Source: Planococcus lenghuensis (lineage in GTDB: Bacteria > Bacillota > Bacilli > Bacillales_A > Planococcaceae). Taken from it: 64,000 bases of DNA. The stretch spans positions 186,001-250,000 of the forward strand of contig NZ_CP019641.1 in assembly GCF_001999905.1 (NCBI RefSeq), read 5' to 3'. Shown in pieces: positions 24,188 to 48,399 of the stretch (the first letter of the stretch is position 1; every line of letters starts with the position of its first letter). The position numbers and the translations under genes were made by a program. The notes beneath the pieces were generated by a model. That model had not been told where the DNA came from. It saw only the letters and a program-made list of their open reading frames with translations, and did not search any database.

Positions 24188-24210
24188 TCTTTTTTCAGTT
24201 GCTTTTGAAG

Positions 24211-24238
24211 CGTTCATAAAAGTGTACTTTAACGAACG
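24211..24238. repeat. dif-like 28-bp site, left edge of mercury cassette
   Basis: An 11-6-11 layout: arms CGTTCATAAAA and TTTAACGAACG around GTGTAC. It shares arm and spacer sequence with the site at 30290-30317 and arm sequence with those at 45652 and 48234. Confidence 0.6.
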
Positions 24239-24343
24239 GTCAATTCACACCAAACGCCTGCTTTTCCTTTCTATCTCCCAAAAGCGTTTCTCCACGCATA
24301 TCTATTCAAAAGTAAATTATTCTTAAAACTATAATCATAATTC

Positions 24344-24375: not shown

Positions 24376-24393
24376 ATAGGAGAGGTGAACAAA

Positions 24394-24792
24394 ATGGAGT
24401 ATAAAATCAGTGAACTGGCAGAGCGTTGTGAGGTGAATAGAGAAACCATTCGGTATTATGAACGGAAAAATCTGCTGCAAAAACCAGCGAAAAACCATTC
24501 CGGCTACCGAATTTACTCAGAAGAAACCGTCAAACGTGTAGGTTTTATTAAGCACCTTCAGGAACTCGGATTTTCCTTGAGCGAGATTGATAGGCTACTG
24601 GGAGTTGCCGATAGAGACGCCGTTCGCTGTGCGAATATGTTTGAATTCGTCTCTAAAAAACAAGAAGAAGTACAGAAACAGATTGAGGATTTAAAGCGTA
24701 TTGAAGTAATGCTGGATGATTTGAAAAAACGGTGCCCTGATGAAAAAGAGCTGTATGAGTGTCCCGTACTAGATGTTCTTCTGGAGGGTTAA
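24394..24792 (+). CDS. merR: Mercury-responsive regulator MerR
   Basis: A 132-aa MerR-family activator-repressor that binds the overlong-spacer promoter just upstream and untwists it when Hg(II) binds. It has an N-terminal winged HTH (YKISELAERCEVNRETIRYY) and a long dimer helix. Cysteines lie at residues 79, 114 and 123, the same three positions that bind Hg in Gram-positive MerR. The promoter drives its own gene and the mer genes after it. The start is ATG 24394 with AGAGGTG. Confidence 0.93.
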   Translation: MEYKISELAERCEVNRETIRYYERKNLLQKPAKNHSGYRIYSEETVKRVGFIKHLQELGFSLSEIDRLLGVADRDAVRCANMFEFVSKKQEEVQKQIEDLKRIEVMLDDLKKRCPDEKELYECPVLDVLLEG

Positions 24793-24795
24793 AGG

Positions 24796-24900
24796 ATGGG
24801 ACGTTGTATTAAAACGAAAATCCGAGTATTTCTTCACGAAGACTGTGCCGTTGAAAAGCGACGGAACAGGAAATCAAGTTTGTTAATGGGGGCGGGATGA
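24796..24900 (+). CDS. Small basic open frame between merR and merP-like gene
   Basis: A 34-codon frame starting three bases after the merR stop and ending directly before the ATG at 24901. It contains two Cys. The position allows translational coupling; it may be only a spacer. Confidence 0.3.
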   Translation: MGRCIKTKIRVFLHEDCAVEKRRNRKSSLLMGAG

Positions 24901-25317
24901 ATGAAGAAATTAGTCGGGGTGGTTGGAATCGCTTTATTTGCCGGTATTATCATCTACATGACAACAAGCAACACCATGACTGCCGGCAATCCTTTTGCTG
25001 AGCAAAACGAAGAACCGATAGAAGTGAATGCGGTTTCCGAGGAAAATATCGAACTGCCGGAAGATGAGACGGCGTTAAAGGAAACCGCTGATCAGGAAAA
25101 GATCGTGTTATCCGGCCTCGGAATGACCTGCTCCAGTTGTGAATACGCTGTCAGCTCCGGGCTCAAGAACACCGAGGGGATTACTGATTTTACGATCAAT
25201 GGACCAGAAGACAGTGCGACGGTTGTGTTTGATCCCGGTCAAGTGACGGTTGATGAGATTGAGCAGGCGGTTGCTGATGTGGGATACGAAGCAGAAGAGG
25301 TCACGGAGGCTGAATAA
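24901..25317 (+). CDS. Membrane-anchored MerP-like heavy-metal-associated protein
   Basis: A 138-aa protein with an N-terminal signal-anchor (VGVVGIALFAGIIIYM), an acidic linker, and a C-terminal HMA domain carrying GMTCSSCEYAV, the two-cysteine Hg(II)/metal site. It probably scavenges Hg(II) outside the membrane and passes it to the transporter encoded next. Its stop overlaps the next start by one base (TAATG). Confidence 0.85.
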   Translation: MKKLVGVVGIALFAGIIIYMTTSNTMTAGNPFAEQNEEPIEVNAVSEENIELPEDETALKETADQEKIVLSGLGMTCSSCEYAVSSGLKNTEGITDFTINGPEDSATVVFDPGQVTVDEIEQAVADVGYEAEEVTEAE

Positions 25318-26012
25318 TGACGTTTGTATATGATGGGCTTGCGGGGCTCGAATCAGCTGGCTTTTTTGTTTACTTTCTTGTCCTCGCTGGCGGAATGTTA
25401 AGTGCGATCAGTGTTTGTTATATCCCTATCCTCATTATGTTTGGCGGGTACATGGGGAAATACTCGGGTGAAGGAAAGGGGAAAGCATTGCGGATTACGT
25501 GGAGCTTTACCCTTGGCATGATGATTACGTCAGCTGTCATGGGAATTATCGCCGCGTTTATCGGCAAGGCGATTATGGAAGTGTTTACAGGATACGGACT
25601 CGATTTATGGATTCCGGTCATAATCGGGCTCTTAATGGGCCTGCAGCTTTTGGGTGTGATCAACCTGAAGTTGCCCAAGATGTTTGCTGTAAAAGGGAAA
25701 AAGCCGGACACGATGGCAGGGGCTTTTACGTTGGGGCTTCCTTTCGGCCTCGTCATCACCCCGTGCACCATTCCGATTTTCGTCATGATCATCACGTATG
25801 TCGCAGCACAGGGAAGCGTGGTCCATGGCGCGTTGTTACTGACCGTATATACGGCCGGTAAAGGAATCGTGCTGACACTGGTTGCGTTAGGAGCAGCGAC
25901 TTTTTTGAAAGATGTTTCCAAAAAATGGAGTGGAAAAATGGAGAAAATCGCCGGAATTATTATCCTTTCGGCTACTGTATACCTGGTCTTTTATCAGCTG
26001 GTTATCAGTTAG
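25317..26012 (+). CDS. CcdA/DsbD-like membrane protein of the mer operon
   Basis: A 231-aa protein with six predicted membrane helices. Two helix-embedded Cys in Pro contexts (SVCYIPILIMF and TPCTIPIFVM) are characteristic of CcdA/DsbD thiol-electron transporters. In this operon it takes the place of MerT, so it is likely to carry Hg(II), or reducing power for it, to MerA. That role is inferred from context. Confidence 0.8.
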   Translation: MTFVYDGLAGLESAGFFVYFLVLAGGMLSAISVCYIPILIMFGGYMGKYSGEGKGKALRITWSFTLGMMITSAVMGIIAAFIGKAIMEVFTGYGLDLWIPVIIGLLMGLQLLGVINLKLPKMFAVKGKKPDTMAGAFTLGLPFGLVITPCTIPIFVMIITYVAAQGSVVHGALLLTVYTAGKGIVLTLVALGAATFLKDVSKKWSGKMEKIAGIIILSATVYLVFYQLVIS

Positions 26013-26095
26013 ATGAGCTGTCATTAAGCTAGGGTATAAATTGGGTATAGGTTAGTAGTGCACTTGATAAAATAGAAAAGGAAGGGTGATGTTTT

Positions 26096-27748
26096 ATGAG
26101 TAGAAAAGAAGTAGAAATAAAGCTGGAAGTTCAAGGGATGACCTGTACAGACTGTGAGAACCATGTAACGAACGCTTTGGAAAGCAAGGGGGCGGAAAAC
26201 GCACAAGCCAATTTCCGCCGCGGACAGGCGACATTTACAATCGAGGAAGACCGCTTGAAAGATGCAAAACAGGCCGTCGATAAAGCCGGCTATGTCGCGG
26301 GTGAAGCAGAGGTCGTATCCGGAGAACGGACATCGTTTTCCGGTAATCCATCCGACGACTACGATCTGTTCATCATCGGTTCAGGCGGAGCTGCCTTTTC
26401 TGCGGCCATCAAAGCGGTGGAAAAAGGGGCGAACGTGGCGATGGCCGAACGGGGAACCGTCGGCGGAACGTGCGTCAATATCGGTTGTGTCCCGTCTAAG
26501 ACATTGCTCCGTGCCGGAGAAATCAATCACCTGGCCGGCCAGCACCCGTTTGCCGGACTGAATACGGAAGCGGGGCAAGTGGATCTGGCAGCGCTGACCA
26601 GCCAGAAAGACGAACTCGTCGAAGGGATGAGACAGCAGAAATACATCGATCTCATCGATGACTACGGTTTTGACCTGATCCGGGGAGAGGCCGCCTTCGT
26701 GGATGAGCGGACGGTTGAAGTGAATGGGCAGCACTACACAGCTGGCAAGTTTCTGGTCTCAACGGGTGCCGCGCCATTTGTTCCGGCTATTCCCGGACTG
26801 AAAGATGTGGACTTCCTGACCAGCACCACGGCTCTGGAATTGGCGGAAGTGCCGAAGAAACTCGCCGTCATCGGTTCCGGCTACATCGCCATGGAACTGG
26901 GCCAGCTGTTCCGTAACCTGGGATCGGACGTGACGCTGATGCAGCGCAGCGACCGGCTCCTGAAGGAATACGACCCGGAAATTTCCGAAGCGGTGGATAA
27001 AGCCCTGACGAAGCAGGGGCTGAATTTCATGACCGGCGTCACGTACAAGAAAGTGGAACAGGACGGGGAGATGAAAAAAGTCTTCCTTGAAGTGAACGGG
27101 GAAGAGCGGATCATTGAAGCCGACCAGGTTTTGGTGGCGACCGGCCGACGGCCGAACACGGAATCTCTCAATTTGGAAGCAGCCGGCGTGGAAACCGGCA
27201 GAAAAGGGGAAGTCACGGTTGATGACTGCCTGCAGACCACTAACGCAAATATCTATGCAGCCGGCGATGTGACATTGGGTCCTCAGTTCGTTTATGTCGC
27301 CGCCTATGAAGGCGGAATCGTAGTCGAGAATGCGTTGGATTCGGCAGCTAAGAAAGTGAACTTGCGTTTTGTGCCGGGTGTGACATTCACCAATCCGTCC
27401 ATCGCAACTGTCGGACTGACGGAACAGCAGGCGAGGGACCGGGGAATTGATGTGAAGACGTCGGTCCTGCCGCTCGAAAACGTGCCGAGAGCGCTCGTGA
27501 ACCACGAAACGAACGGTGTCTTCAAGCTCGTCGTCGACAACGGGTCGCAGAAAATCATCGGAGCCCATGTGGTGGCTGAGAACGCCGGAGATGTCATCTA
27601 CGGCGCGACGCTCGCTGTGCAGTTCGGGCTGACGGCGGATGATCTGAAGAACTCCATGGCGCCGTATCTGACGATGGCCGAAGGGCTGAAGCTCGCCGCC
27701 ATCACCCTCGATAAAGACGTCAGCAAGCTGTCCTGCTGCGCAGGGTGA
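26096..27748 (+). CDS. merA: Mercuric reductase MerA
   Basis: A 550-aa flavoprotein that reduces Hg(II) to volatile Hg(0) with NADPH. The N-terminal HMA domain has [11 protein letters not shown]. The FAD-binding [12 protein letters not shown] is followed by the redox-active [13 protein letters not shown], and the NADPH fold has [11 protein letters not shown]. The C-terminal paired cysteines (KLSCCAG) that hand Hg(II) to the active site are present, so all catalytic parts are intact. It is preceded by an 83-base gap after the transporter and followed by a terminator. Confidence 0.97.
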
Positions 27749-44474: not shown

Positions 44475-45611
44475 TCAACAGTCTTCTTCAATTTGCATAT
44501 TCTTCTTGGATCGATTGGTTCCCATGCGTGTTAGCACCTGTTCTTGGTCTTTGCTGGACAAGTTGGTATAAAGAGAAGTGGTTTCAATATTGCTATGTCC
44601 TAGCTGGTCACGTAAAAGCACAATATTCCCGCCATTACGGATGAAATCTGCAGCAAAACTATGGCGCAGTTTATGAGGACTGATACCCTCTCCTTGAGCA
44701 AATGCAGCCGTATACTTGCCGACCAGGTTCTCAATGGCCCGACGGGAAAGAGGGCGGGCAGTGCCACCATAGAGTGTGACGAACAGGAAGGGGACATCCT
44801 TCGCCCCCTTATAGCGGGCCTCCCGAATGGAAAGATAAGCCTTCAAATGCTCGATTGCCTGATCCATGATATTCACGGTATCTTCTTTTGCGCCTTTCCG
44901 TTTGATATCAATCAGTTTCTTTTTCAGATTCACTTTTTTCGTCAACATGCCTGCAGTTTCAGCTAGCCGGATTCCGCTGCCAAGAAAAAGGGAGAGGATG
45001 GCTAAATCACGTTCCTTATCCCGTTTAAACCGCTGTTTGGCTATGGCGCTTTCCAGCAATTCTTCGTACTCGAATTCCACAAAATGCAGAAACTCATGGA
45101 TCTCTTGGTCATTCAGGATAACTGAACTGATTTTCTGCGCGCGTCTGCTCGCCGTTTCTTTTTTTGTATGCAAAACGATTTTGCTCATGACGTTCCGGTA
45201 GAAGTAAGATTCTCCTTCTTCATTCTCGGTTTCCTTCGTCAGGTAATTGAATAGGGACTTCAACGCATGGACGGAGAGATTAACGACGTCTTTCCCGCGT
45301 TTTTTGGTCGTTTCCTGTTCGTAATGAATGGATTCTTCCTGAAGGTACTCGATGTAGAGCTCGATGTCCTGTTTTCGCAGTTTCTCCAGGACGGAATAGG
45401 GGATGGAAGCAGCATCCGCCGCATCGGTCAGTCCTTCCCGGAGCAGCCACTTGAAAAAGTGCTGATAGCGGTAGAGGTACTGTAGCAAGGTGTTCGCTGA
45501 TAGCCCTGCACGTTTTTTAGAACGGATGTATTCGACAACGTAGAAGGGCATAGTTGTAAGTTGTGTTTCAATGCGCTGTAGAACCTGCAGCTCTTCGGGT
45601 GTCATGGCCAT
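44475..45611 (-). CDS. xerS: XerS-like tyrosine recombinase
   Basis: A 378-aa recombinase with the layout of XerS, the single-recombinase dif resolvase of streptococci: YVVEYIRSKKRAGLSANTLL near the N-terminus and EGESYFYRNVMSKI in the middle. The catalytic groups are Arg in GSGIRLAET, Lys in IKRKGAKED, His-x-x-Arg in SPHKLRHSF, His in QLGHSNIETT and Tyr in SLYTNL. A 28-bp dif-like site lies only 41 bases upstream, as difSL lies beside xerS. I start at ATG 45611, behind AAGGAAG. Candidate for the enzyme acting on all the dif-like sites here. Confidence 0.85.
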   Translation of the reverse strand: MAMTPEELQVLQRIETQLTTMPFYVVEYIRSKKRAGLSANTLLQYLYRYQHFFKWLLREGLTDAADAASIPYSVLEKLRKQDIELYIEYLQEESIHYEQETTKKRGKDVVNLSVHALKSLFNYLTKETENEEGESYFYRNVMSKIVLHTKKETASRRAQKISSVILNDQEIHEFLHFVEFEYEELLESAIAKQRFKRDKERDLAILSLFLGSGIRLAETAGMLTKKVNLKKKLIDIKRKGAKEDTVNIMDQAIEHLKAYLSIREARYKGAKDVPFLFVTLYGGTARPLSRRAIENLVGKYTAAFAQGEGISPHKLRHSFAADFIRNGGNIVLLRDQLGHSNIETTSLYTNLSSKDQEQVLTRMGTNRSKKNMQIEEDC

Positions 45612-45651
45612 AAATCGAACGCTTCCTTTCGTTTTGTTATATCGGTATAAT

Positions 45652-45679
45652 TGTTCGCAAAATACAATTTTAACGAACA
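45652..45679. repeat. dif-like 28-bp site beside xerS-like gene
   Basis: Arms TGTTCGCAAAA and TTTAACGAACA surround TACAAT. This is the left edge of the MNT/Fic cassette. The arms are those of the site at 48234, in the opposite order. Confidence 0.7.
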
Positions 45680-45862
45680 AATGTTCTATTTTTATTCAAA
45701 TTACTTATATATTGAAAAGCGGCTTACTCATAGCAATATAAAGATGCAAGTTTTTGAGATTCAATTTTGCTTTAGCAAAGAGAGGGGAGCAGACTATACT
45801 CCTTTCTTGGTACAAGAATCTCCAAGAAACAGAGTTTGAGAACAAGTAACCCATAGGTGATC

Positions 45863-46267
45863 CTATTGCTTTCCATAAATCGACTTACTTTCATCAATCT
45901 TGTCTAGAATCGGCTGCCGTTCTTCGTTCAGTTTTGCATACATTTTATAGGTCTTCATTTCGAACTCCATACGTTGCCGTTCATCTTCCCCGAACAAAAG
46001 TTTTCCGCTGCTTACAATCTGCATCTGAAACACGGTTGACGCTCTGGCTAAATCAATCAAATCCACATCCTGATTCAGGATGGCTGCCAGTTCTTGCGCG
46101 ATGATGAACACTTGGTACTCGTCAAACTGCTGGTTACTCAGAAAAGCAATGTCTAAATCGCTGTCCTGACGTGCGGTACCATTCGCTGTAGAACCGAACA
46201 CAATCAACAGCATTGGAGAAAGTCGATCGATCAGGAAATGCTTTACTTGCTCCAGTTTTGCATCCAT
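45863..46267 (-). CDS. MNT-type minimal nucleotidyltransferase
   Basis: A 134-aa protein with VFGSTANGTARQDSDLDIAF, the GS-x-DxD nucleotidyltransferase site. Relatives (MntA) are antitoxins that AMPylate a HEPN RNase toxin, but no HEPN gene is next to it, so it may be an orphan or have another partner. The ribosome site AGGAGG is seven bases before the ATG. Confidence 0.82.
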   Translation of the reverse strand: MDAKLEQVKHFLIDRLSPMLLIVFGSTANGTARQDSDLDIAFLSNQQFDEYQVFIIAQELAAILNQDVDLIDLARASTVFQMQIVSSGKLLFGEDERQRMEFEMKTYKMYAKLNEERQPILDKIDESKSIYGKQ

Positions 46268-46343
46268 TGCATGGCCTCCTGTAAAACTTCAGTTTCAGGC
46301 ACTGTTATACAACCACCTAAATAATAACTCCAATGACGAAACT

Positions 46344-47087
46344 TTACGTGAAAACTTTTAAGTAATTAACCAGACTTTCTTCCACACATCCTGCGATTAA
46401 GTTTATAAAAGGCTGCAGATCCTGTTGTGTACTTGCGATTTCCAACGTTCCATAATACTTCAGACGCTGCTCATTCTCAGCTTTCACAATGGCAGGGGGG
46501 AACCCATTGCTCATCAAAATCAGGTTCATTAACAAGCGCGCAGTGCGCCCATTCCCGTCAGCAAATGGGTGGATATAGACAAATTTAAAGTGGAATTCAG
46601 CAGCCAGTTCTACAGGATGCAATTCTTCTTGTGCTTGGCCATACCATTCAAAAAGGTTCTTTATTTCATGCGGGACTTGGAGAAAATGGGGTGGCTTATG
46701 TTTGCTGCCCGAAATTCTAATGTTAGTCGCACGATATATACCTGCATTTTCGTTATCTATGCTTTTCAAAACCAAGTAGTGAATTGTTTTGATAACTTCT
46801 TCATTTAACACTGTAGGTCGCTGGATTTGTTCCTCTACATAGTCAATCGCTTCTGAGTGATTAATAACCTCCAAATGCTCCTGCAGACGCTTGCCGCCAA
46901 TGGTAAGACCATCTTCTAGAATTACTTTTGTCTCGATTAAGGATAAAGTATTTCCTTCAATGGCATTAGAATTATAGATCCATTCGATTCGTTCAACCGC
47001 TTTAAGATTTGCTTCTGCCACTCGTTGGAGTGGCAGATGTTTATCTAATTTTCTCTTAAGCATATCGACATTCAGAATACTCTCCAC
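46344..47087 (-). CDS. Fic-family AMP transferase
   Basis: A 247-aa protein with the intact Fic motif HPFADGNGRTARLL and an N-terminal inhibitory helix SNAIEGN, the class II self-inhibited arrangement. It would AMPylate a protein target. It shares the cassette with the MNT gene and DUF3800; joint function is inferred only from position. Confidence 0.9.
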   Translation of the reverse strand: MESILNVDMLKRKLDKHLPLQRVAEANLKAVERIEWIYNSNAIEGNTLSLIETKVILEDGLTIGGKRLQEHLEVINHSEAIDYVEEQIQRPTVLNEEVIKTIHYLVLKSIDNENAGIYRATNIRISGSKHKPPHFLQVPHEIKNLFEWYGQAQEELHPVELAAEFHFKFVYIHPFADGNGRTARLLMNLILMSNGFPPAIVKAENEQRLKYYGTLEIASTQQDLQPFINLIAGCVEESLVNYLKVFT

Positions 47088-47171
47088 TAATTAACACCCA
47101 ACCTTACTTGAGATATAAGCGTATAGAGAAAGTGTGTTTGATACCCGCAATTTACTTTTAGAGACGAACTT

Positions 47172-47969
47172 CTATAAATGGTCACTTAAAAATATATCCA
47201 AGTAATTTTTGAAAGGGGCATCAATCAAATCATTAGATTTTCCCCATTCATAAAGCTTTACGCGATTTAGAAAGGAGTAAAAGCTATCACTTTCAGTTAT
47301 CAAATCAAGGATCAGTTTATTCTTGACTCTTTTTCCCGATGTACTATCATTGGGATTTTCTATTATGGTCCTGACTATTCCAAGTAGCAAATCCGTTAAC
47401 TCTATCCCATATTCTTCTTGTTTGGCCATGTATTGAACATCACTGAGCTTGAAGTTTTCACCTCTATATATGGATTGGATATTGAGTTGCTCAAACATTT
47501 GCCGCCTTAAGTCGTAATTTTTGGCTTCATATGTGTTATCGTGCTCAATAGCAACCTGTGCATCTACAAAGGAATGACTTCCGTACTTCCTGATCAATCC
47601 ATAAACAACTCGTTCAGGGAACTTCGTATAAATGGTATGATCGACCACATCAGCAAATTTTTCTTTGATTTCTTGCGAGTCTTGTTGAATCTTATTCTGA
47701 TTATAGGAAATGACGTTCATTTTCATTAGACGTTGATGATTCATGGCTGTGAGTATGATTTTTTCTATTTTTTTCCGTGTCGATCCATGTCCACGAAAAG
47801 TGGCCCAATGGATATCTGACTGGCGAACAATTTCGTTCAGTTCCTGTAATTCCGGCAATTCATACAAAGTCGATGGGATTAGAATAGCACCCATTAAATG
47901 AATTTTCTCTGAATGTTTACCGCTCTCATCAAAGAAAATTCGAACCGGAAAAGATTTTCTTTCTGTCAC
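47172..47969 (-). CDS. DUF3800 protein
   Basis: A 265-aa protein beginning VRIFFDESGKHSE, the DUF3800 signature (RNase-H-like fold), with a second acidic site (AIEHDN, GIELTDLLLG). DUF3800 genes are frequent in defence islands and next to mobile elements; a nuclease activity is suspected but not demonstrated. It is the first gene of the leftward cassette. Confidence 0.8.
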   Translation of the reverse strand: MTERKSFPVRIFFDESGKHSEKIHLMGAILIPSTLYELPELQELNEIVRQSDIHWATFRGHGSTRKKIEKIILTAMNHQRLMKMNVISYNQNKIQQDSQEIKEKFADVVDHTIYTKFPERVVYGLIRKYGSHSFVDAQVAIEHDNTYEAKNYDLRRQMFEQLNIQSIYRGENFKLSDVQYMAKQEEYGIELTDLLLGIVRTIIENPNDSTSGKRVKNKLILDLITESDSFYSFLNRVKLYEWGKSNDLIDAPFKNYLDIFLSDHL

Positions 47970-48083
47970 ATGGACACCGCCTTAGCTACTGGTTAGCTGG
48001 TTAATATAACTTTACAAATTACTTCGTTTACGCGATAATAATAAAGAAGAAACAAACCAAGTTGAATAAACATTGTAGCATTT

Positions 48084-48163
48084 TATTGGTTGCTCCTTAA
48101 TTCGCAGCTTGTAGATGCTACGTACTGAAACCTATTGGTTGCTCCTTAATCTGCAGCCTGTAG
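48084..48163. repeat. Two 31-bp direct repeats
   Basis: TATTGGTTGCTCCTTAAT followed by C-rich GCAGC-TGTAG occurs at 48084-48114 and 48133-48163 with three mismatches, at a 49-bp period. It lies upstream of the DUF3800 gene. Unknown purpose, possibly a regulator binding array. Confidence 0.6.
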
Positions 48164-48178
48164 GTTTTACTTTTTATC

Positions 48179-48215
48179 AAAAAGAGCGGTCTCTTAGCGA
48201 GATGGCTCTTTTCTA
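48179..48215 (+). terminator. Hairpin terminator at cassette edge
   Basis: AAAAGAGC pairs with GCTCTTTT around an inner TCTC/GAGA stem. It lies just before the dif-like site. Confidence 0.55.
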
Positions 48216-48233
48216 ATTATATCACACCTCAAT

Positions 48234-48261
48234 TGTTCGTTAAATCGACATTTTGCGAACA
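48234..48261. repeat. dif-like 28-bp site, right edge of MNT/Fic cassette
   Basis: Arms TGTTCGTTAAA and TTTTGCGAACA surround TCGACA: the same two arm types as at 45652, in inverted order (D-C against C-D), as seen around pdif modules. Confidence 0.7.
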
Positions 48262-48399
48262 ATTGGTTTTACAATCCGAACTAGGATTTAGCGTGATTTC
48301 GTTATCTTTGATAAACCTTCTTATTCAACGCCTCTCCCCACTTCTTCTTAGAACTGTTATTTTCACCAAGATAAAGATGTTCATGTACTTCATACGGCT

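What the first reader, a model, noticed from the sequence alone, without database searches (positions are those of the whole stretch)
45611..48261. XerS-like recombinase beside oppositely oriented dif-like sites around an MNT/Fic/DUF3800 cassette
Site 45652-45679 reads C-arm, spacer, D-arm; site 48234-48261 has the same two arms inverted. Inverted pairs are a pdif-module hallmark. The recombinase gene starts 41 bp from the left site, as xerS does from difSL. Together with the mercury cassette this suggests a single-recombinase cassette system in a Gram-positive replicon.
Basis: partly seen in the sequence, partly recalled or inferred. Interest (0 to 1): 0.8.

Follow-up and report, generated by a model that had tools for sequence, protein, structure and literature searches.

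The report
Plasmid recombinase with swappable defence-gene cassette
A large bacterial plasmid carries its own DNA-swapping enzyme next to two mirror-image docking sites that bracket a few toxin- or defence-like genes, and comparison with relatives suggests that such cassettes are exchanged between plasmids at those sites.

Summary
Two 30-bp sites with identical arms lie in inverse orientation around MNT/Fic/DUF3800 genes, beside a XerS gene; shuffles gave none. The replicon is a 329-kb RepA_N contig, taken as a plasmid, of a Planococcaceae genome.

The anatomy recurs: distal site D, cassette, proximal site P, xerS. I aligned 37 such pairs (10 from related Enterococcus plasmids); no pair has identical spacers. 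Arms vary between lineages but agree within pairs. Eighteen of 37 cassettes carry Fic, Doc-like, TIR or MNT-HepT genes.

Homology between relatives breaks at the sites. Three loci share the flank outside D but carry different cassettes. In Enterococcus all four combinations of two flanks and two modules occur across D, in 79, 142, 121 and 23 records. Fic and XerS relationships conflict in 26 of the 34 quartets that both resolve.

Best reading: a self-encoded, single-recombinase analogue of Acinetobacter pdif modules, working like recombinase-mediated cassette exchange with heterospecific sites. Catalysis is inferred, not shown; recombination inside short shared sites by RecA is not excluded. 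The mercury genes are not part of it.

The parts
44475..45611 (-). xerS, tyrosine recombinase of 378 aa; R215, K239, H313, R316, H339 and Y348 invariant in the 7-protein alignment
45651..45680 (+). proximal site P; spacer ACAATT (read towards xerS: TTAAA-ATTGTA-TTTT)
45863..46267 (-). MntA-family nucleotidyltransferase antitoxin; no HepT-like ORF recognised in the window cassette
46344..47087 (-). Fic-domain protein; its cluster is the commonest cassette gene among the loci clustered
47172..47969 (-). DUF3800 protein, first gene after D
48216..48243 (-). promoter-like TTAACG-16-TATAAT whose -35 hexamer is the inner arm of D, reading into the cassette
   Evidence: consensus match only; 8 promoter-like matches in the region against 7.4 expected
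48233..48262 (-). distal site D; spacer GTCGAT, inverse orientation to P

Best explanation
The locus is a plasmid-borne XerS recombination unit with an exchangeable cassette. P is the dif-like site that goes with xerS, probably for plasmid multimer resolution (inferred from difSL). D is a second XerS site of opposite polarity and different spacer that closes the other side of the cassette. Because P and D spacers differ, P should recombine poorly with D, so the cassette is neither flipped nor lost. When two such plasmids share a cell, P x P (a near-constant spacer) and D x D (when spacers match) can fuse and then resolve them, exchanging what lies between P and D or the DNA outside D. This is the logic of recombinase-mediated cassette exchange with heterospecific sites. 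The cargo (Fic, Doc-like toxin with antitoxin, MNT-HepT, TIR, DUF3800 and others) probably stabilises the plasmid or protects the host. Shown: anatomy, recurrence, arm co-variation, unequal spacers, breakpoints at both sites. Inferred: that XerS catalyses the exchanges, the two-step route, and the benefit of the cargo.
For: Chance excluded for the window. A scan of 103 xerS loci against 600 random placements gave 31 loci at p<=0.01 with P within 320 bp of xerS and D within 4 kb; 10 of the 31 are related Enterococcus loci and 4 I regard as chance. In the orientation-blind scan of 35 stretches, all 16 that hold both P and D have them inverted. In 37 pairs, arms agree at 17-24 of 24 positions and spacers are identical in 0. 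Arm sequences vary between lineages and agree within a pair. L139, L144 and L148 share the outer flank up to the inner edge of D; for L144 and L148 homology resumes at P; cassettes are 833, 898 and 1910 bp. L048 and L049, two plasmids of one strain with the same P and D spacers, are 91% identical from P through xerS and carry different cassettes. In Enterococcus, flanks A/B and modules X/Y occur in all four combinations with the switch inside D: L174 and L175 are 99.9% identical left of D, L175 and L181 99.8% from the outer edge of D rightwards; records covering 80% or more of the junction queries number 79, 142, 121 and 23. Sequence groupings also change at P. XerS and Fic identities conflict in 26 of the 34 quartets (of 210) that both resolve. 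The largest cassette ORF points the same way as xerS in 25 of 26 non-Enterococcus loci with an ORF, many of them related.
Against: No recombination was observed directly. In Enterococcus the xerS side mostly travels with the module across D, so a clean double exchange at P and D in one event is not seen there. The Planococcus-group swaps are old (flanks 77-86% identical). Six of 25 plasmid xerS loci that I fetched have no convincing pair, and L060, L061 and L071 have P but no D found. Ten of the 24 site-bearing genomes searched have no xerS at E<=1e-30, and many D sites are solitary. One random placement scored 33, as high as real pairs. RecA recombination within 30-42 bp of shared site sequence cannot be excluded.
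Confidence: 0.66

Rival explanations
1. A plasmid stability locus only: XerS resolves multimers at P, a toxin/antitoxin gene sits beside it by selection for maintenance, and D is a relic or second resolution site. The mosaic arose by ordinary homologous recombination and selection at gene borders.
For: Toxin/antitoxin-type cargo beside xerS in several lineages; solitary D sites and xerS-less modules look like relics.
Against: At D in Enterococcus the partners' sequences on both sides do not match in blastn, so the site is nearly the only shared sequence at the switch. The same edges recur in the Planococcus group. Arms of P and D change together between lineages.
Confidence: 0.18
2. An invertible switch: XerS flips the cassette between the inverted sites to turn genes on and off.
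For: Inverted pair beside a recombinase gene; a promoter-like match overlaps D.
Against: Spacers differ in all 37 pairs, by 2 to 5 of 6 bases. The largest ORF has one orientation in 25 of 26 non-Enterococcus loci and the other in 6 of 6 Enterococcus loci with an ORF.
Confidence: 0.05
3. P and D are operator sites at which XerS or another protein regulates xerS and the cassette; recombination is incidental.
For: P lies just upstream of xerS in the window and D overlaps a promoter-like match.
Against: P may lie up to about 770 bp from xerS with a gene between. Operators do not predict breakpoints at their edges.
Confidence: 0.07
4. Ordinary pdif modules worked by the host XerC and XerD.
For: Inverted sites around toxin/antitoxin-type cargo, as in Acinetobacter; the genome also encodes two chromosomal XerC/XerD-sized relatives.
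Against: The dif-like site of this genome reads TTCCTATAATTTATATTATGTCTACT, unlike P and D. P and D arms vary with the xerS lineage and P lies beside xerS.
Confidence: 0.04

Closest known systems
XerS/difSL chromosome dimer resolution of streptococci and lactococci (PMC5357621, passages seen)
   Same: Single XerS-family recombinase encoded next to a dif-like site.
   Different: Plasmid-borne here; the host also has XerC/XerD-like genes and a dif-like site; a second inverted site with another spacer closes a cassette.
pdif (dif) modules of Acinetobacter Rep_3/OrfX plasmids (PMC13141974, passages and the whole Discussion seen)
   Same: Inversely oriented dif-like sites bound modules, toxin-antitoxin modules being abundant; single modules replace one another at the sites; models use matching spacers and cointegrate formation followed by resolution.
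   Different: There chromosomal XerC and XerD act on sites with distinct XerC and XerD arms and a 6-bp spacer, and modules alternate in sets. Here one xerS is encoded beside the site, there is one cassette per locus, and P and D spacers differ in every pair seen.
Recombinase-mediated cassette exchange with heterospecific sites (laboratory technique, recalled)
   Same: Two non-cross-reacting sites bracket a cassette.
   Different: Natural, with cargo of defence or toxin type; not demonstrated biochemically.
Integrons (recalled)
   Same: Tyrosine recombinase beside a primary site next to variable cassettes.
   Different: Integron cassettes carry directly oriented attC sites and form arrays; here the sites are inverted and there is one cassette.

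Membership tests
XerS (NCBIfam NF003462) | Score above the curated cut-off | tested here: met
   406 bits against cut-off 267
XerS (NCBIfam NF003462) | Tyrosine recombinase catalytic residues R-K-H-R-H/W-Y | tested here: met
   R215, K239, H313, R316, H339, Y348 invariant in 7 proteins; the motif is given in PMC5357621; assigning these residues to it is mine
XerS/difSL dimer resolution system | Site immediately adjacent to xerS | tested here: met
   39 bp between site and ATG
XerS/difSL dimer resolution system | Acts as the chromosomal system in place of XerCD/dif | tested here: not met
   XerC/XerD-like genes and a dif-like site are on the chromosome; the unbroken xerS genes are on C2 and C3
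XerS/difSL dimer resolution system | 31-bp site with an 11-bp central region and preferred cleavage of one strand | not testable with these tools
   Stated for difSL in PMC5357621; cleavage positions here are unknown
pdif (dif) modules | Inversely oriented dif-like sites flank the module | tested here: met
   Orientation-blind scan: 16 of 16 stretches with both P and D have them inverted. The 37 pairs were collected as inverted pairs, so they do not test orientation.
pdif (dif) modules | Sites are XerC and XerD binding sites used by the host XerCD | tested here: not met
   Arms differ from the genome's dif-like site and follow the xerS lineage; binding itself was not tested
pdif (dif) modules | Alternating C and D modules in sets | tested here: not met
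   One cassette per xerS locus in the stretches scanned
pdif (dif) modules | Exchange partners share identical or nearly identical spacers | tested here: inconclusive
   Consistent: the D core is the same in 10 of 10 Enterococcus loci; L139 and L144 share both spacers, L148 differs by one base in D; not tested by experiment
Invertible DNA switch | Identical spacers in the two inverted sites | tested here: not met
   0 of 37
Integron | Directly oriented sites bounding cassettes in an array | tested here: not met
   Sites inverted, one cassette

The most novel reading that the evidence does not exclude
A natural, self-encoded cassette-exchange machine: XerS with a universal docking site (P, spacer ATTGTA or a near variant even where the XerS is only about 35% identical to the window's, as in Enterococcus) and a variable second site whose spacer acts as an exchange-group code (D). 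It locks cassette orientation and lets toxin/antitoxin and defence genes be swapped between large plasmids across Planococcaceae, other Bacillales and Enterococcus, including E. faecium.
Probability: 0.45. Interest if true: 0.86.

Novelty: new variant of a known kind. Interest (0 to 1): 0.73.

Why it matters
pdif modules, in the papers that I saw, are a XerCD system. A single-recombinase version that carries its own enzyme and uses two non-matching sites would explain how toxin/antitoxin and defence genes are shuffled between large Gram-positive plasmids, including E. faecium plasmids for which hundreds of records are available. It makes the open question of how a single module bounded by inverted sites moves directly testable with one protein and two 30-bp sites. 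It might also supply a ready-made heterospecific site pair for cassette exchange in Firmicutes. My literature searches listed no paper whose title or abstract start describes XerS-bounded cassettes; 'XerS' with 'Planococcus' and 'XerS' with 'Enterococcus faecium' and 'megaplasmid' gave 0 papers. I opened three papers only (PMC5357621, PMC13141974, PMC3025954); the other listed papers were not opened, and most subscription papers and all bioRxiv preprints are outside that library.

Tried and rejected
One search used a pattern with the wrong spacing and was ignored. One search (single-protein scan of genome contigs) found nothing; the alignment scan replaced it. One search returned unrelated papers. 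Bacillus subtilis plasmids with a similar Fic gene list no xerS in the stretches shown, and the two that I scanned, L166 and L168, gave no pair; L167 was fetched but not scanned. L169 (Peribacillus sp. R9-11) was cut by the start of the record and was not counted. L171 has only a weak distant candidate and was counted as no pair. L134 and L140 (L140 is the same locus as L054) have D, Fic and xerS but no P within 5 mismatches; they are not among the 37 pairs but are among the ten loci. L063 is the weakest pair (17 of 24 arm bases). In one search the strongest null placement scored 33, as high as several real pairs, so single scores are not decisive alone; recurrence is. Four loci of the chromosomal XerS clade pass p<=0.01 with poor site likeness (L089, L096, L097, L118), and I regard them as chance; L105 looks real but its sites are almost palindromic, so its polarity is uncertain. 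A terminus link was considered because the chromosomal sites lie 27 kb from the dif-like site; in G101, G083 and G079 the distances are about 0.06, 0.22 and 1.68 Mb, so I dropped it. L135, L138 and L143 carry a third, half-degenerate D-like site 108-146 bp past xerS, in direct orientation to P; unexplained. In one search the D class was defined by spacer only, so it includes P of L159 and a few weak matches. Seven of the 31 other site-bearing genomes (G030, G065, G066, G135, G164, G178, G242; one 3-mismatch site each) looked like chance; no larger stretch was fetched from them and they were not searched for xerS. I made no structure prediction.
Full report
WHAT IS THERE. The window is C2:186001-250000 of a four-contig genome. 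C2 (329 kb) and C3 (89 kb; lengths) each carry a RepA_N replication gene, so I take both as plasmids. The family is Planococcaceae: contigs of relatives in the same family match named Planococcus, Planomicrobium and Rummeliibacillus contigs in length and position (my matching). On the minus strand, xerS (44475-45611) passes the NCBIfam XerS cut-off (406 against 267 bits). 39 bp lie between its ATG and site P. Then follow a MntA-family gene, a Fic gene, a DUF3800 gene, and site D in inverse orientation. All 24 arm bases of P and D are identical and 5 of 6 central bases differ. 100 shuffles of the window gave no match.

THE SAME GENOME. Seven sites lie within 3 mismatches. C3 has an inverted pair beside another unbroken xerS, around a TIR-domain gene. 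The chromosome has a pair beside a truncated xerS, around a short Fic ORF, MNT and HepT. One solitary site is near the end of C2. Another broken xerS is on the chromosome and one more xerS at C2:64079 has no such site upstream. XerC/XerD-like genes and a dif-like sequence are present on the chromosome.

RECURRENCE. In 261 family genomes, 32 have sites within 3 mismatches; some single 3-mismatch hits look like chance. PLSDB holds 513 records with a XerS relative at E<=1e-20. I fetched 25 plasmid xerS loci, chosen by me and not at random: 19 have an inverted pair (L048-L052, L170, L172-L183, L189) and 6 have no convincing one (L053, L171, L186-L188, L190). Of the 80 genome-contig loci kept out of 121 relatives, 10 of the 19 at 48% identity or more have a pair (L055-L059, L062-L064, L066, L067). 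Among the other 61, mostly Neobacillus, Metabacillus and the like, I see no convincing pair apart from L105; several show a single site like ATTACGTAAAATATAAATTTGACGTAAT upstream. I aligned 37 pairs, 10 of them from related Enterococcus plasmids: arms agree at 17-24 of 24 positions and spacers are never identical. Arms vary with the lineage (TTCGTAAAA...TTTTACGCA in Peribacillus frigoritolerans, TATAGAAA...TTTCTATA in Enterococcus, AACTAAA...TTTAGTTACATG in Lysinibacillus sphaericus; other Lysinibacillus and Peribacillus asahii are close to the window's) but are shared within a pair. Read towards xerS, the centre of P stays near ATTGTA (ATTACA, ATTATA, ATTGTT, ATTGAA; ATAAGA in L. sphaericus); D varies. 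In the orientation-blind scan, all 16 stretches with both sites have them inverted.

CARGO. Named genes between D and P: Fic; DUF3800; MNT, with HepT on the chromosome and in L189; TIR; a Doc-like Fic/DOC-family toxin with an antitoxin (Enterococcus); a weak proteasome-like match (L048); DUF2971 (L144); and a RES-like match just below its cut-off (L064). By my count over the 37 pairs, 18 carry Fic, Doc-like, TIR or MNT-HepT genes, 4 DUF3800 alone, 5 Enterococcus modules have lost the toxin, 1 (L151) is almost empty and 9 carry something else or nothing recognised. PADLOC links Fic, MNT and TIR to candidate defence families; these are model matches, not tested functions.

BREAKPOINTS. Coordinates are relative to xerS. 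Many comparisons between loci with different cassettes begin their homology at P (-60 to -83), for example C3 with the window, L050, L055, L056, L058, L060 and L061, or L057 with the window, L060 and L061; others begin only at the xerS start; loci with related cassettes are homologous through P. L139, L144 and L148 share the outer flank at 77-86%; homology stops 28-37 bp from the start of the 30-bp D, and for L144 and L148 resumes at P through xerS at 80%. Their cassettes are 833, 898 and 1910 bp and do not match each other. L139 keeps P but has other DNA instead of xerS beyond it. L054 and L056 are homologous from the outer edge of D onward. L049 and L050 share the D-Fic-P block at 85% while xerS is 73% identical. 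Over ten loci with both genes, XerS and Fic identities conflict in 26 of the 34 quartets (of 210) that both resolve by my margin; quartets are not independent. L140 and L049 have XerS 97% and Fic 76% identical, L140 and L148 80% and 86%.

ENTEROCOCCUS AS A POPULATION TEST. Ten loci (L174-L183) all have D and P, and the core of D is the same in all ten. Left of D are flanks A, B or C; right of D are modules X (Doc-like toxin and antitoxin) or Y (no ATG-started ORF of 50 aa or more in L175; a remnant in the related L176). A-X: L174, L179. A-Y: L175, L180. B-X: L177, L178, L183. B-Y: L181, L182. C with a Y-like module: L176. L174 and L175 are 99.9% identical left of D and have no blastn match for about 475 bp right of it; L175 and L181 are 99.8% identical from the outer edge of D rightwards. 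An outer-arm base of D follows the flank, A against B, and the sequence beyond D follows the module. Queries of 234 bp centred on D are covered at 80% or more in 79 (A-X), 142 (A-Y), 121 (B-X) and 23 (B-Y) records; one flank plus the site makes up only about 57% of a query. These records include near-clonal plasmids, so they are not independent events. At P the grouping changes as well: left of P, X and the B-X type are 93-95% identical and Y 76-80% to either; right of P, X and Y are 88-89% identical and the B-X type 56-78% to either; within xerS all are 90% or more alike. The xerS side mostly travels with the module, so the Enterococcus data show exchange at D more clearly than a full double exchange.

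MECHANISM. [quoted passage not shown] The same logic fits here with one enzyme. Unequal P and D spacers would hinder inversion, consistent with one cassette orientation in 25 of 26 non-Enterococcus loci with an ORF and the opposite one in 6 of 6 Enterococcus loci with an ORF. P as a multimer-resolution site is inferred from difSL (PMC5357621, passages). D's inner arm may also serve as a -35 box: a TATAAT-like hexamer with at most 1 mismatch lies 14-19 bp inward in 15 of 42 D-class sites against 5.7 expected, and in 2 of 23 P-class sites. The sites are related by descent and the D class includes a few weak matches, so this is a hint only.

WHAT DOES NOT FIT. Ten of the 24 site-bearing genomes searched lack xerS at E<=1e-30 (24 of the 31 other site-bearing genomes), so some modules are relics or act with an enzyme that I did not find. 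Solitary D sites are common. A random placement reached a score of 33. RecA-mediated exchange in the 30-42 bp of site sequence is not excluded. Nothing here shows catalysis.

VERDICT. Observation confirmed; interpretation right in its core and wrong about the mercury genes (MerR, HMA, DsbD-like and a Pyr_redox-HMA protein that I take for MerA, 24385-27748), which have no site within 3 mismatches around them. New variant of a known kind.

Noticed in passing
window 24210-24239: An imperfect palindrome upstream of merR (GCGTTCATAAAAGTGTACTTTAACGAACGG) resembles a repeated element (about CGTTCGTAAAAGTACACTTTTACGAACG) seen in L143, L151 and L156, and in L050 close to a 'recombinase family protein' gene; perhaps a resolvase subsite.
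   Followed up: partly
window 45863-46267: The MntA antitoxin gene has no recognised HepT toxin gene beside it, although the chromosomal cassette (L016 10649-11489) and Peribacillus L189 have both.
   Followed up: partly
L135 6349, L138 5862, L143 (146 bp past xerS): A D-like left half-site 108-146 bp past the xerS stop codon, same orientation as P, right arm degenerate.
   Followed up: no
L142, L145, L146, L147, L150, L152, L153, L160-L163; C2:329258 (L018): Solitary D-type sites without P or xerS in the stretch, several in genomes without any xerS found.
   Followed up: partly
L151 8337-8572: P and D only 176 bp apart with no ORF of 60 aa or more between them, an almost empty module.
   Followed up: no
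L170 7174-7557; L174 7358-8023; L176-L178, L183 just past xerS: A second, short tyrosine-type recombinase/integrase gene follows xerS in Peribacillus asahii and Enterococcus plasmids.
   Followed up: no
C1:1900420-1901414: A second chromosomal xerS, in two frames and lacking its start, about 13 kb from the dif-like site at C1:1887246.
   Followed up: no
L105 (Halalkalibacter okhensis): A XerS locus of the other clade with a second matching near-palindromic site 2.6 kb upstream.
   Followed up: no
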